Origin: Persephonella sp. IF05-L8
GTDB taxonomy: Bacteria; Aquificota; Aquificia; Aquificales; Hydrogenothermaceae
Direction: 5' to 3'
Length of the DNA: 37,022 bases
Assembly (NCBI RefSeq): GCF_000703045.1
Contig: NZ_JNLJ01000005.1
Location: forward strand, 1 to 37,022
Shown here: piece after piece, positions 4,254 to 9,292 of the stretch
Position numbering within the stretch: the first letter of the stretch is position 1
How the letters are laid out: every line of letters begins with the position of its first letter
The notes under the pieces: model-generated
Database searches by the model: none
What the model was told of the DNA's origin: nothing
Seen by the model: only the letters and a program-made list of their open reading frames with translations
Translations under genes and position numbers: made by a program

Positions 4254-4283
4254 TTCTACAAAATCCAGAGATATGAATTTTAT

Positions 4284-4291
4284 GCTATATT
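4284..4291 (+). promoter_or_regulatory. Extended -10 promoter in front of rubredoxin
   Basis: The string TATGCTATATT contains an extended -10 (TGC before TATATT at 4286-4291). Transcription would begin about at the rubredoxin ATG at 4298, so the transcript may be leaderless. The same TATGCTAWAWT form precedes efp and the M24 peptidase in this window. Confidence 0.45.
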
Positions 4292-4297
4292 TTAGAT

Positions 4298-4492
4298 ATG
4301 AAGGGAAAGGTGATTATCAAGGACAGGACTATAGGCAGGTTTAGATGTAAAGTCTGCGGGTATATATATGACCCTGAAAAGGGAGATGAAAAAAGGGCTA
4401 TTTCTCCAGGGATAAGATTTGAGGAACTTTCTGATAAATGGAGATGTCCCGTTTGTGAATATCCAAAATCCCATTTTTACAGGATTGACTGA
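4298..4492 (+). CDS. Rubredoxin
   Basis: A 64-residue one-iron electron carrier. The iron ligands are Cys17 and Cys20 (CKVCGYIYDPEKGD) and Cys50 and Cys53 (CPVC), with the usual spacing and the conserved GYIYDP and W-x-CP context. There is a ten-residue N-terminal extension relative to minimal rubredoxins. No ribosome binding site precedes the ATG, and an extended -10 ends only six bases upstream, so leaderless translation is likely. The stop overlaps the ATG of the following methyltransferase (TGATG). Rubredoxins often serve oxygen or superoxide detoxification in microaerophiles; the partner here is not visible. Confidence 0.95.
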   Translation: MKGKVIIKDRTIGRFRCKVCGYIYDPEKGDEKRAISPGIRFEELSDKWRCPVCEYPKSHFYRID

Positions 4493-5115
4493 TGGATATA
4501 GGAAAACGATTTGATGCAGTTGCAAACAGATACGACACACCGGAAAAATACAAAAGGTCTCAAGATTTCCTGAAAGCTATTTTAGAAAACCTTCCTGATA
4601 CTAAGAATTTCAAAGTTATGGATATAGGAGCAGGCACAGGTATTCTGGATATAATGCTTGCACCCTATGTGAAAGAGATTGTGGCTTTTGACCTTTCGGA
4701 AGGAATGCTTAATGTTTTCAAAGAAAAAATTGAGAAAAATAACATAAACAACATAAGAATTTATAAACACGACATATTGTCAGAAGGCTTTCCTGAAAAG
4801 GATTTTGACCTGATTATTACCTCAATGACATTTCACCATCTTGATGACCCTGTTGAAGCCCTTAGAAAGCTAAAGGAATATCTCAAAACAGGTGGTTATA
4901 TAGCTGTAATAGACCTTTACAAAGAAGATGGCACATTTCACTCAGATAACACTGATGTAAAGCATTTTGGCTTTGATGAAAATGAGATTGAAAACTGGCT
5001 AAAAGAAACCGGTCTGGAAAAAGTCAAATACCAGATAGTCCACACCATAACCAAAGAAAGAGAAGGGCAAAAAAGAGATTATCCTGTTTTTATGATTATG
5101 GCCATAAAAAGATAA
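4492..5115 (+). CDS. Class I SAM-dependent methyltransferase
   Basis: 207 residues with a Rossmann methyltransferase fold. Motif I is VMDIGAGTG (42-50), the acidic residue ending strand 2 is in VAFDLSEGM, and motif IV-like DLIITSMTFHHLDDP lies near the middle. It belongs to the UbiE/Methyltransf_11 type; the substrate is unknown and it could act on a small molecule, a quinone precursor or a metal. It is translationally coupled to rubredoxin by a TGATG overlap, suggesting a shared redox or stress role. The gene ends just upstream of an inverted repeat that includes the ribosome site of the next gene. Confidence 0.85.
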   Translation: MDIGKRFDAVANRYDTPEKYKRSQDFLKAILENLPDTKNFKVMDIGAGTGILDIMLAPYVKEIVAFDLSEGMLNVFKEKIEKNNINNIRIYKHDILSEGFPEKDFDLIITSMTFHHLDDPVEALRKLKEYLKTGGYIAVIDLYKEDGTFHSDNTDVKHFGFDENEIENWLKETGLEKVKYQIVHTITKEREGQKRDYPVFMIMAIKR

Positions 5116-5118
5116 ACT

Positions 5119-5155
5119 TCCCTCCTGCAAATTTATAAAATAAAAACAGGAGGGA
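5119..5155 (+). promoter_or_regulatory. Inverted repeat that can sequester the ribosome site of the triheme cytochrome
   Basis: TCCCTCCTG (5119-5127) is a perfect complement of CAGGAGGGA (5147-5155), separated by a 19-base A+T-rich loop. The right arm contains the AGGAGG ribosome site for the ATG at 5161. In any transcript that includes both arms the site would be paired. A TATAAA at 5134-5139 inside the loop could be a promoter whose transcripts lack the left arm. It may be a translational switch (thermometer-like) or a way to silence read-through mRNA. Confidence 0.6.
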
Positions 5156-5160
5156 CAAAA

Positions 5161-5985
5161 ATGAGAGCTTTAGCAGGGATATTAAGTTTATTACTGCTCA
5201 CATCTGCCTTTGCAAAAAATGTAAAACTGAAAGACCCCCCTGAAGAGTTATCAAAATACTATCCTCCAAAATCTGAAAAATATGAATTTCTAAACCTTAT
5301 GCATCAGCTTTCCACCTCAATGACAGGTATTGTTGTAAATCTGAAAGGAGAGGACTGGAAAAATGCACAGCTATGGGCTGAAAAATTACAGGAAAACTAT
5401 CTAAAAATCGGTCAGATGGTCAAAAAATGGGATAGAAACCTTAAAAAGACCAATGCACAAAAACTTGTAGAAGCTGTTAAAAACAAAGACAAAGCCACAG
5501 CCATGGAAAACCTGAAAGCTATAGGAAGAACCTGTGTCCAGTGTCATAGAGCTTATCAGGCTTCTGTAAAGGTTAAATACCATACACCTGATTTTGAGAA
5601 GATAAATGTTGAAGACCCAGTATCAGGTGAAAAATTAGACTATGGCAAATATATGAAAAATATGACAAACGATATGAAATTACTGAAAATTTACCTTACA
5701 GAAGGTAAAAATAAAGAAGCCAAGAAAGCCGGACTTTCATTCACAAAAAGACTTAAAGGATTATCCCAATCCTGCAGTGAATGTCATACACAGGAAGAAG
5801 GTTCAGAAAAAATATATTTTGGAGAAAGAGCCCAGAAGCATATAAATGCCCTTCAAGAAGCAATCAAAAAATCAGACAAAGAAGCTATCTCACAACATAT
5901 AAGATGGATTTCCCAGAACAATTGTGCAAAATGCCATAATGTTCACCAGACACTTTATTTGATAAAGGAAAAATTTGGTGATTAA
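5161..5985 (+). CDS. Periplasmic triheme cytochrome c
   Basis: 274 residues with an N-terminal signal peptide (hydrophobic run to about residue 17, LLLLTSAFA). Three c-type heme sites are visible: CVQCH (125-129), CSECH (205-209) and CAKCH (255-259). The sequence before each site is helical and Lys/Glu-rich, as in cytochrome c-prime-like four-helix units, and the protein looks like repeated units of that kind, the last one shortened. It is expected to carry electrons in the periplasm. The ribosome site AGGAGGGA is strong but lies in an inverted repeat. A pentaheme cytochrome gene follows after two bases, so the two probably form one electron-transfer unit. Redox partners are not visible here. 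Confidence 0.9.
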   Translation: MRALAGILSLLLLTSAFAKNVKLKDPPEELSKYYPPKSEKYEFLNLMHQLSTSMTGIVVNLKGEDWKNAQLWAEKLQENYLKIGQMVKKWDRNLKKTNAQKLVEAVKNKDKATAMENLKAIGRTCVQCHRAYQASVKVKYHTPDFEKINVEDPVSGEKLDYGKYMKNMTNDMKLLKIYLTEGKNKEAKKAGLSFTKRLKGLSQSCSECHTQEEGSEKIYFGERAQKHINALQEAIKKSDKEAISQHIRWISQNNCAKCHNVHQTLYLIKEKFGD

Positions 5986-5987
5986 AA

Positions 5988-6899
5988 ATGCCTTTACTCC
6001 TGCTACTATTAGCGGTTTTTATAGCAGGTTGCGACAGTATAGAAAAAATATTCTTAGAGGAGGACTTGCTTCAACGTCCTCCTTCCAAAAGATGTGCAGA
6101 ATGTCATCAAAACATATATAACCAGTGGCTTACTTCCAGACATTCAAAGGCATGGACTTCTTCCCATTACGCAGAGGCAACTGATAATTATACAAAAACA
6201 AAATGTCTTTCCTGCCACGCACCCCTTGAGATACATCCTGAAAAAAAACCACAGCTGAGGGATAAACTCAGAGAAGAAGGGGTTAATTGCTTTTCCTGCC
6301 ATTACAAAGAAGAAACAAACTCAATACACGGCCCTTATGATGTATTTTCTCCACCCCACTACTCAACTTACGACCCTGTTTATATAACATCAAAGATTTG
6401 TTCTTCCTGCCATCAAAAAACTTATAAGCAATGGCAACAGACAGTCTCAAAAAGAAATTGTCAGGAATGCCATATGCCAGCCAAAAAAGGTAGGCTTATA
6501 CAAAAATTTCCCTTTACATATCTGCATTCTAAAAAAGATATCCATTCCCATAAATTTCCTGCTTCTATAGCCTCTGAAAAAGACTTTCAGATTAAAATTT
6601 CCATTAATGATGATATTCTTACCCTTAGCATAAAAAACACAGGAATACCCCATTCAGTTCCCACTGCAGATAACGGAAAACCTAAGCTTTATATATATTT
6701 GACAGGATTTAAAAATGGAAATGAAATTTTTAATCAGATGCAGATAATAAATTCAAAAGACCCTCTAAAATTTGGAAAATGGAAAGAACTGGATTTCTTT
6801 ATTGATTTAAAACCTGATAAGGTAGTAGTCACTATTTTAAGAAAGCTTTCATGGAAGAATAAAAAGGAAAAAGTTCTTCAAAAAGAGTTTCAATTCTGA
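5988..6899 (+). CDS. Pentaheme cytochrome c lipoprotein
   Basis: 303 residues. The N-terminus is a short hydrophobic stretch ending in a lipobox (FIAGC, Cys15), so the mature protein is probably lipid-anchored. Five heme sites follow: CAECH (36-40), CLSCH (72-76), CFSCH (100-104), CSSCH (137-141) and CQECH (157-161). The layout resembles the cytochrome c554 family. The C-terminal 130 residues have no heme site and look like a beta-rich domain. It starts two bases after the triheme cytochrome gene, using GGTGA as a modest ribosome site, so coupled translation is likely. The 3' end overlaps the convergent small membrane gene by ten bases. A role in a periplasmic nitrogen or sulfur redox pathway is plausible but not shown. 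Confidence 0.88.
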   Translation: MPLLLLLLAVFIAGCDSIEKIFLEEDLLQRPPSKRCAECHQNIYNQWLTSRHSKAWTSSHYAEATDNYTKTKCLSCHAPLEIHPEKKPQLRDKLREEGVNCFSCHYKEETNSIHGPYDVFSPPHYSTYDPVYITSKICSSCHQKTYKQWQQTVSKRNCQECHMPAKKGRLIQKFPFTYLHSKKDIHSHKFPASIASEKDFQIKISINDDILTLSIKNTGIPHSVPTADNGKPKLYIYLTGFKNGNEIFNQMQIINSKDPLKFGKWKELDFFIDLKPDKVVVTILRKLSWKNKKEKVLQKEFQF

Positions 6900-7476: not shown

Positions 7477-8328
7477 ATGGGTAAAATTATGGGTCTTGTT
7501 AATCAAAAAGGTGGAGCAGGTAAAAGCAGTCTTACTAATGCAATCTCTCATGAACTTGCCAGAAGAGGGTACAAAGTTCTGGTTGTGGATTACGACCCTC
7601 AGGGAACACAAACTATGCTTTTTGGATTTAACAGGCTTTCTGAATTTGTAAACACAGAGCACGACATCACAAACATTTTTGAAAATGAAGGTGTAATCCC
7701 TGTTAATGTAAAAGAAAACCTTGACCTTATCCCCTCAAATCAAGGTCTTAGAGAAGAGGCAGAAAGTGGAAGAATGGGAAAAGAGCTTGTCCTGGCCAAT
7801 TTCCTGAAAGGTGGTTTTGGCAAAAAGGGCATAGCAGAGGAATATGATTTTGTTCTAATAGATTCCCCTGCCGATAGCGGAGCGTTAACCGTTGGGACTG
7901 TAGCTGCCAGTGATTATATCCTTGTTCCGACCAGATTGACCTTTGTTGATTCTACCGGGTTGGTAGGAACACTTCAGACCGTCATACAGGCAGTAATGAC
8001 CTTTAGGCTTGATTTGTCTATACTTGGATTTATTCCTGTGGCATATAAGCCAAGACTTAGAGAACATAATGATGTCCTTGCTTCCTTAAAGAAAACCATT
8101 CCTGAAATACTTGAAAAATATGATTTTATAAAAACTGCTTCTGATGAATTATTCTTTGAACCTATCAAAGACAGAATTGCCTGGGCAGAAGCAGCAGGGA
8201 AAAGAGTTTCAATCAGAGATTACATAGAAAAAGAAAAAAGAGCCCAAAAGGATATTATCCTTACCGTTGAAAATATCACAGATGAAATTATTAGAAGAAT
8301 TCATCTGCCTGAAACTGTAATGGTATAA
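7477..8328 (+). CDS. parA: ParA-family partition ATPase
   Basis: 283 residues. The deviant Walker A box NQKGGAGKS (9-17, with signature Lys11 and Lys16) is followed by VDYDPQGT (Walker A-prime, Asp40) and VLIDSPAD (Walker B, Asp129). These define the ParA/Soj/MinD class that moves DNA by ATP-dependent nucleoid binding. There is no N-terminal DNA-binding domain, as in chromosomal Soj or type Ib plasmid ParA. The start has a good site (AAGGAG). parB follows after 13 bases, so the two form an operon. The TAAGACAAT repeats immediately upstream are a likely regulatory or centromeric site. Chromosomal versus formerly plasmid origin cannot be decided here. Confidence 0.92.
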   Translation: MGKIMGLVNQKGGAGKSSLTNAISHELARRGYKVLVVDYDPQGTQTMLFGFNRLSEFVNTEHDITNIFENEGVIPVNVKENLDLIPSNQGLREEAESGRMGKELVLANFLKGGFGKKGIAEEYDFVLIDSPADSGALTVGTVAASDYILVPTRLTFVDSTGLVGTLQTVIQAVMTFRLDLSILGFIPVAYKPRLREHNDVLASLKKTIPEILEKYDFIKTASDELFFEPIKDRIAWAEAAGKRVSIRDYIEKEKRAQKDIILTVENITDEIIRRIHLPETVMV

Positions 8329-8341
8329 GGAGGTCAGTAAG

Positions 8342-9292
8342 ATGGATTTAGGAATTTTTGAAGATGTTCTTGACACACCAAAAACACAAAAAGCAAAAAA
8401 GGCAATACAAACAATACAGGAAGTAAAGCCACAGGAAATAGAGATATCAAAAATAAAAAATCCCCGCTTCCATGACAGAAGTTATGTAAGCCCTGAGAGA
8501 ATTGTAGCTCTGGCAGAAAATATTAAAGCCTATGGCCTTGCCCAGCCTATAGTGGTTAGAAAGCTTGAAGATGGCAGTTATGAAAGAATAATCGGATATA
8601 TTCGTATTAAAGCCTACGAGTATCTAAAAAAGGATAAAATTCCTGCAATTGTCCTTGATGTTGATGAAGAAACAGCATTAGCCCTTATGATTTCTGAAAA
8701 TGCCCAGAGGGAAGACCTGAATGATTATGATAAACTTATGTCCCATCTGGAGTATTTATCATTTATACTGGGCAAAGATAAAGAAGAAGTAATTAAAGTA
8801 GCAAGAAAGGTATTTAATTATATTTCTGGAAATGTGAAACAGCTTACTCCAGAAGAGAGAAAAGAGGGACAAATCATAGAAAAAACCCTTCAAAAACTAT
8901 CAGGCACAAACCTAAGAACATTCATAGAAAGACTAAAAATCCTGAATGTTGCACCTCAGATTAAAGAAGCCATCAGAAAATATGGCTGGTCTTATAGTCT
9001 TGCAATAGAGGTTAATAAACTCAGACATATACCTGAAAAAATGGAACAGCTTATACAGGAAATAATAGATAAAGGTCTTACCAAAAAAGAAGTTCAGCAA
9101 AGGGTAAAAGAAATCTTAGGAGAAGAAGCAGAAAAAAGAGTTAAAAACCCATTCAAAGAAACTTTCAAAGAGCTAAACAAAAGAGTATCAGAGCTATACA
9201 GAAAGTTGCCTGAAAAAGAAAAAACAAAAGTAGAAAAAGCAATAAACAAAAAACTCAGTGAAATCTACAAACTTCTTGAAAAATATGAATAA
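8342..9292 (+). CDS. parB: ParB-family centromere-binding protein
   Basis: 316 residues with an N-terminal ParB/Srx-type domain (about 33-130). It carries LAENIKAYGLAQPIVVR, GYIRIKAYEYL in the position of the canonical GERRxRA nucleotide-binding motif, and ENAQREDLNDYD matching the conserved ENxQREDLN box. A helix-turn-helix-like middle part and a Lys/Glu-rich C-terminal region follow. The GERR motif is altered (GYIR), so CTP use may differ from model ParBs. The ribosome site TAAGGAGG is strong. The gene ends at an intrinsic terminator. ParB would load at its site, perhaps the upstream repeats, and be moved by ParA. Confidence 0.88.
   Translation: MDLGIFEDVLDTPKTQKAKKAIQTIQEVKPQEIEISKIKNPRFHDRSYVSPERIVALAENIKAYGLAQPIVVRKLEDGSYERIIGYIRIKAYEYLKKDKIPAIVLDVDEETALALMISENAQREDLNDYDKLMSHLEYLSFILGKDKEEVIKVARKVFNYISGNVKQLTPEERKEGQIIEKTLQKLSGTNLRTFIERLKILNVAPQIKEAIRKYGWSYSLAIEVNKLRHIPEKMEQLIQEIIDKGLTKKEVQQRVKEILGEEAEKRVKNPFKETFKELNKRVSELYRKLPEKEKTKVEKAINKKLSEIYKLLEKYE

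What the first reader, a model, noticed from the sequence alone, without database searches (positions are those of the whole stretch)
5119..5155. Ribosome-site-sequestering hairpin before a cytochrome operon
A perfect 9-bp inverted repeat pairs the AGGAGG of the triheme cytochrome with TCCCTCCTG 28 bases upstream. The left arm is only four bases after the methyltransferase stop. A promoter inside the loop would give mRNA that lacks the left arm, so read-through mRNA would be shut while self-initiated mRNA is open; alternatively the hairpin melts with temperature.
Basis: partly seen in the sequence, partly recalled or inferred. Interest (0 to 1): 0.65.

Follow-up and report, generated by a model that had tools for sequence, protein, structure and literature searches.

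The report
Hairpin coupling methyltransferase and cytochrome translation
In a heat-loving Persephonella-type bacterium, a short RNA hairpin that relatives have preserved hides the ribosome-binding site of a cytochrome gene and sits exactly where a ribosome finishing the gene before it would pull it open, so the cytochrome is probably made only when its neighbour is translated.

Summary
The hairpin is real and exact: left arm 5119-5127 (UCCCUCCUG), loop 5128-5146, right arm 5147-5155 (CAGGAGGGA) containing the AGGAGG of the triheme cytochrome gene (ATG 5161). Among 297 genes with a recognisable ribosome site in 400 kb of the same genome, it is the longest and strongest such lock. It is kept in six of nine distinct junctions of the genus that have the same methyltransferase-cytochrome neighbourhood. 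The arm sequences drift, with changes on both sides of three pairs, and the left arm always lies 2-4 nt after the methyltransferase stop. Most cytochrome orthologues without that neighbour lack it. It stays closed at 70-75 C in the energy model, so it is not a simple thermometer. No conserved promoter lies in the loop; a conserved promoter-like element precedes the rubredoxin gene that begins the cluster. Masking 8-9 nt after the stop, as a terminating ribosome would, frees the ribosome site in the model. Best reading: an RNA-unfolding translational-coupling hairpin in a rubredoxin-methyltransferase-cytochrome-cytochrome operon, a new member of a known kind. No transcript or translation data exist here.

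The parts
4286..4291 (+). extended -10-like element (TGC-TATATT) of the likely operon promoter; the transcript would start at or next to the rubredoxin ATG (4298)
   Evidence: sequence; T(G/A)TGnTATATT-like element kept just before the first gene in the nine loci compared; transcription start not mapped
4298..4492 (+). rubredoxin gene, first gene of the cluster; stop overlaps the next start (TGATG)
   Evidence: Pfam PF00301 E 3.9e-21; junction
4492..5115 (+). class I SAM methyltransferase gene (207 aa; UbiE/BioC-like, exact substrate unknown); stop codon 5113-5115
   Evidence: PF13847, PF08241 and others; only sub-threshold NCBIfam matches
5119..5127 (+). left arm of hairpin, UCCCUCCUG, three bases after the methyltransferase stop
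   Evidence: relatives
5128..5146 (+). A/T-rich loop (19 nt; longer and different in most relatives)
5147..5155 (+). right arm CAGGAGGGA, containing the Shine-Dalgarno AGGAGG 5148-5153
5161..5985 (+). triheme c-type cytochrome gene (274 aa, three CXXCH, signal peptide-like start): the gene whose ribosome site is hidden
   Evidence: PF01322 E 3.5e-10, PF14537 E 1.5e-6; found in 34 of 41 family genomes
5988..6899 (+). multiheme lipoprotein-like cytochrome c554-type gene, start 2 nt after the previous stop and without a clear Shine-Dalgarno of its own
   Evidence: PF13435 E 1.5e-9; junction spacing -4 to +5 in relatives

Best explanation
The hairpin is a translational-coupling gate of the RNA-unfolding type. 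In mRNA transcribed from upstream (rubredoxin-methyltransferase-cytochrome-cytochrome), the left arm pairs with the cytochrome's Shine-Dalgarno and blocks initiation. A ribosome ending translation of the methyltransferase stands with its leading edge over the left arm, which begins only 2-4 nt past the stop, so the helix cannot form. The ribosome site, which starts about 32 nt after the stop, is then exposed and a new ribosome can load. The cytochrome pair is thus made in step with the methyltransferase. Shown: the helix, its conservation with covariation, the fixed distance to the stop, its restriction to this gene neighbourhood, and its modelled stability. Inferred: that the genes share one mRNA, that the hairpin lowers initiation, and that terminating ribosomes open it.
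For: Strongest SD sequestration of 297 genes. The hairpin recurs in the own/G028/G019/G025 clade, G018 (weaker), G023, JALVEJ and G020. Three pairs have changes on both sides; the true register scores 0.267 in covariation against at most 0.170 for any slid register. A G-U pair inside the stem of three lineages points to RNA, not DNA. Left arm 2-4 nt after the stop in every hairpin-bearing lineage, although the stop is TAA, TAG or TGA and the gap varies from 44 to 54 nt. Masking 8-9 nt after the stop lowers SD pairing at 70 C from 1.0 to 0.20-0.05 in the window's own sequence and from 0.99 to 0.28-0.24 in G020. Most orthologous cytochromes without the methyltransferase upstream have an open SD. 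The other two junctions of the cluster are also of coupling type, overlapping or a few nt apart. A promoter-like element is conserved before the first gene. Literature precedent for this geometry: E. coli rpmI-rplT, +52 nt spacing with inhibitory structure (review PMC12548453).
Against: Two relatives (G017, G024) keep the gene pair but lack the hairpin, and G029 has at best a weak one, so it is not essential. Covariation is modest: 17 of 500 shuffles reach the score, with only six rows in an arm alignment made by hand. G018's helix is weak and not better than shuffles (0.257). Structure directly after a stop codon correlated negatively with coupling in one screen cited in the review PMC12548453. 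The short intergenic gap itself limits where a left arm could lie. No expression data.
Confidence: 0.62

Rival explanations
1. Read-through lock: cytochrome mRNA normally starts at a promoter in the hairpin and lacks the left arm; mRNA arriving from upstream keeps the arm and is translationally shut, as in T4 gene e or IS10 transposase (from memory).
For: The loop holds A/T-rich -10-like letters (TATAAA 5134-5139, TAAAAT 5136-5141). The same genome has a hairpin placed that way behind a sigma-54-like promoter at another gene.
Against: No promoter-like site on the + strand near 5119-5155 in the scan. The best -35/-10 pairs differ in kind and place among relatives and mostly score 7-8 of 12. The left arm is within reach of ribosomes terminating on the methyltransferase, which would open the lock on translated read-through mRNA.
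Confidence: 0.09
2. RNA thermometer: the hairpin melts as temperature rises and admits ribosomes.
For: It hides the SD; thermophiles at vents meet steep temperature changes (general knowledge).
Against: Modelled SD pairing 0.99 at 75 C and 0.96 at 90 C; 7.8 kcal/mol still needed to free the SD at 70 C. The stem is a perfect GC-rich helix with none of the mismatches or U-runs of ROSE or fourU thermometers (from memory). Energies are extrapolated and in-cell salt may lower them.
Confidence: 0.05
3. Regulated switch: a protein (for example the methyltransferase, or a redox or heme sensor) or a small RNA stabilises or opens the hairpin.
For: Conserved hairpin before genes of one respiratory-type function; many operator hairpins look like this.
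Against: Loop sequence and length are not conserved among hairpin-bearing relatives, no Rfam family matches, and no partner was found. Not excluded.
Confidence: 0.12
4. mRNA processing or stability element between the methyltransferase and cytochrome parts of the transcript.
For: An intercistronic position is typical of such hairpins.
Against: The right arm is the SD itself; no T-run, so not a terminator. The helix follows SD changes with matching left-arm changes.
Confidence: 0.07
5. DNA-level dyad, the operator of a transcription factor.
For: A perfect inverted repeat in DNA.
Against: Arm spacing varies (19 nt in the own sequence, more in relatives), arm sequences change, and G-U pairs that break DNA symmetry are kept in three lineages.
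Confidence: 0.03

Closest known systems
E. coli rpmI-rplT translational coupling (RNA unfolding model; review PMC12548453)
   Same: stop-to-start spacing of about +50 nt; structure blocks the downstream ribosome site; the ribosome on the upstream gene opens it
   Different: rpmI-rplT is also controlled by the L20 protein and a pseudoknot (from memory); here a simple local hairpin with no known regulator
E. coli atpHA coupling switch (Rex et al. 1994, cited in PMC12548453 and PMC7538156)
   Same: mRNA structure over the downstream ribosome site, opened by translation of the upstream gene, followed by new initiation
   Different: different genes; here the pairing partner lies entirely in the spacer just past the stop, and the organism is a thermophile
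T4 gene e / IS10-type read-through locks (from memory)
   Same: inverted repeat whose 3' arm is the ribosome site
   Different: those rely on a promoter inside the repeat; none is evident here, and the left arm is exposed to terminating ribosomes
ROSE / fourU RNA thermometers (from memory)
   Same: SD-sequestering hairpin
   Different: perfect GC-rich stem that stays closed through 75 C in the model

Membership tests
translational-coupling hairpin (RNA unfolding type) | structure that occludes the downstream gene's ribosome site | tested here: met
   SD paired 1.0 at 37 C, 0.99 at 70-75 C; first of 297 genes. Prediction only.
translational-coupling hairpin (RNA unfolding type) | structure lies where upstream translation or termination disrupts it | tested here: met
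   Left arm 2-4 nt past the stop in all hairpin-bearing lineages; masking 8-9 nt frees the SD in the model.
translational-coupling hairpin (RNA unfolding type) | both genes on one mRNA | tested here: inconclusive
   Same strand, kept together in the genus; promoter-like element before the first gene, none conserved at the junction. No transcript data.
translational-coupling hairpin (RNA unfolding type) | downstream translation depends on upstream translation | not testable with these tools
   Needs reporters with an upstream stop mutation.
read-through lock (T4 e / IS10 type) | promoter whose start lies 3' of the left arm | tested here: not met
   No conserved promoter-like element; a start site could still be missed by consensus scans.
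read-through lock (T4 e / IS10 type) | read-through RNA keeps the hairpin closed | tested here: inconclusive
   Untranslated read-through RNA would be closed; translated read-through RNA should be opened at the stop.
RNA thermometer | melting within the growth range | tested here: not met
   Energy model only: 0.99 paired at 75 C, 0.96 at 90 C.
any Rfam family | match at gathering score | tested here: not met
   Only two chance-level snoRNA matches far below gathering score.

The most novel reading that the evidence does not exclude
The genus uses the same part, a hairpin whose 3' arm is the SD, in two opposite ways. Here it is a gate that translation of the upstream gene opens. At a sigma-54-type promoter (C1:837487) the start site would fall inside the left arm, so that only mRNA from the dedicated promoter is translatable. 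SD-sequestering hairpins would then be a working device of gene control at about 70 C, with opening by ribosome or by start-site choice rather than by heat.
Probability: 0.25. Interest if true: 0.55.

Novelty: new member of a known kind. Interest (0 to 1): 0.37.

Why it matters
It would show that hairpin-gated translational coupling operates in deep-branching thermophiles, where weak RNA structure melts and only strong, dedicated stems can act. It also offers natural variants (hairpin present, weak, lost) for a direct test of the RNA-unfolding model. It ties a rubredoxin and a methyltransferase of unknown substrate to two multiheme cytochromes, suggesting a common function.

Tried and rejected
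Thermometer: rejected on modelled stability. Terminator: no T-run. Known RNA family: none. Promoter in the loop: no conserved element. A plain MAFFT alignment of the junction shifted the right arms and was not used for pair counts; arms were aligned in register with an artificial linker instead. Checked whether the 12 CCTCCT..AGGAGG sites of the genome share this architecture: most have no sizeable gene after the SD, one (L084) lies between divergent genes, and L077 is a different, sigma-54-associated hairpin. Literature searches for Persephonella transcriptomes, read-through locks and thermophile RNA thermometers gave nothing directly relevant.

Full report
Observation. The inverted repeat is exactly as described: left arm 5119-5127 UCCCUCCUG, 19-nt loop, right arm 5147-5155 CAGGAGGGA, which contains the AGGAGG of the gene at 5161. 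The methyltransferase stop is 5113-5115, so the spacer between stop and arm is three bases. The gene at 5161 encodes a 274-aa protein with three CXXCH motifs and cytochrome c domains; the upstream gene is a class I methyltransferase. The closest named record, a contig whose length and match position equal those of the same-species genome G028, is labelled Persephonella sp., a genus of Hydrogenothermaceae.

Chance. I took a 400-kb sample of the same genome (G+C 34%), called genes crudely and scored SD sequestration for 297 genes with a recognisable SD. This gene is first in helix length (9; the next are 8, 7 and 6) and first in mean pairing of the SD core at 37, 70 and 75 C. With the SD fixed and the left region shuffled, 0.05% of shuffles pair as well. 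The full-length pattern CCCTCCT..AGGAGGG occurs at two places in the whole genome, with no hit for the reversed-pattern control.

Relatives. The cytochrome is found in 34 of 41 family genomes. Among the loci read, only those of the window's genus (g1), plus a MAG contig labelled Flavobacteriales that carries the same cluster at genus-level identity (L036, JALVEJ; probably mis-binned), have the methyltransferase directly upstream. Counting near-identical junctions once, nine distinct junctions were compared. Six have the hairpin: own/G028; G019/G025; G018 (weaker, 6 bp with a G-U); G023; JALVEJ; G020 (11 bp with two G-U). G017 and G024 lack it, and G029 has at best a weak one. In a tree of both proteins these fall in several lineages, with the hairpin-less pair G017/G024 weakly beside hairpin-bearing G020 (support 41), so loss is the simplest reading.

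Covariation. With arms in register, own CCCUCCU/AGGAGGG becomes CCUUCCU/AGGGAGG in G020 and G023: one C-G to U-A change on both sides and one U-A to U-G. The first own pair U-A becomes A-U. In all, three of ten pairs show changes on both sides, and 81.7% of cells are paired against at most 64.8% in slid registers; 17 of 500 shuffles reach the covariation score and 36 of 500 the percentage paired. This is moderate, not overwhelming, support from six rows. The in-stem G-U pairs and the variable arm spacing favour RNA over a DNA operator.

Geometry. In every hairpin-bearing lineage the left arm starts 2-4 nt after the methyltransferase stop, whatever the stop codon (TAA, TAG, TGA) and although the gap to the cytochrome start runs from 44 to 54 nt. 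If the first k nt after the stop are made unavailable, SD pairing at 70 C in the window's sequence falls from 1.0 (k=0-3) to 0.71 (k=6), 0.20 (k=8) and 0.05 (k=9); G020 falls from 0.99 to 0.24 at k=9. A ribosome with the stop in its A site covers roughly that much (established knowledge, not tested here). Most cytochrome orthologues without this neighbour have an unsequestered SD; of 21, two (L019 and L022) pair 0.75 or more at 70 C.

Operon. The other junctions are tight: rubredoxin and methyltransferase overlap or lie within 3 nt, and the two cytochromes lie from -4 to +5 nt apart (some of these starts come from alignments and are approximate). A TGnTATATT-like element stands just before the rubredoxin start in the nine loci compared. 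At the cytochrome junction no promoter-like element is kept, and the scan finds none on the + strand there. So the simplest view is one transcript from before the rubredoxin gene.

Mechanism. The RNA-unfolding model of translational coupling (review PMC12548453; also favoured by PMC7538156) fits: the hairpin blocks new initiation, and the ribosome terminating on the methyltransferase prevents its formation. The spacing is like that of rpmI-rplT (+52), which the review gives as a case where the upstream ribosome can prevent the structure without occluding the downstream ribosome site. Here the ribosome site begins about 32 nt after the stop. The thermometer idea fails in the model, since 7.8 kcal/mol are still needed at 70 C to free the SD. 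Persephonella species grow at about 70 C (own knowledge); energies are extrapolated from 37 C parameters.

Limits. There is no transcript, structure-probing or translation data. Gene calls are crude, the sample is 22% of the genome, and the arm alignment was made by hand. The review also cites a screen in which structure right after the stop lowered coupling. Loss in G017/G024 shows that the device is dispensable.

Verdict. A real, conserved and well-placed RNA element, most likely an RNA-unfolding translational-coupling gate: a new member of a known kind in an unusual host.

Noticed in passing
own genome C1:837487-837513 (L077 1501-1527; L105 just upstream of 1501), relatives L106-L111: A second, stronger SD-sequestering hairpin (AACCTCCTGAAAAATTATTTTTCAGGAGGTT, z -6.6) precedes a 149-aa exported protein gene and is kept in seven genomes with arm changes. 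A sigma-54-like element (TTGGCAC-N5-TTG) stands at near-constant distance, so that the expected start would fall inside the left arm; an NtrC-type activator gene follows.
   Followed up: partly
window 6058-6083 (codons 24-32 of the second cytochrome): Coding-region inverted repeat AGGAGGAC-N10-GTCCTCCT kept at nucleotide level in all ten copies of the genus, using codons that are disfavoured here (CGT is 4% of Arg codons, GAG 25% of Glu), and absent from the orthologue in G016 of another genus. Suggests a conserved RNA hairpin inside the gene; function unknown.
   Followed up: partly
window 5102-5111: Near the end of the methyltransferase the stretch GCCATAAAAA is invariant in nucleotide sequence across the ten junctions, part of the only run of identical codons found in that gene.
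   Followed up: no
window 4283-4300: The conserved extended -10-like element lies so close to the rubredoxin ATG that the mRNA may be leaderless or nearly so.
   Followed up: no
L036 (JALVEJ010000194.1): A contig labelled as a Flavobacteriales MAG carries the same gene cluster at genus-level identity (70% in the methyltransferase), probably a binning error.
   Followed up: no
window 7477-9292: ParA/ParB-like genes directly follow the cluster.
   Followed up: no
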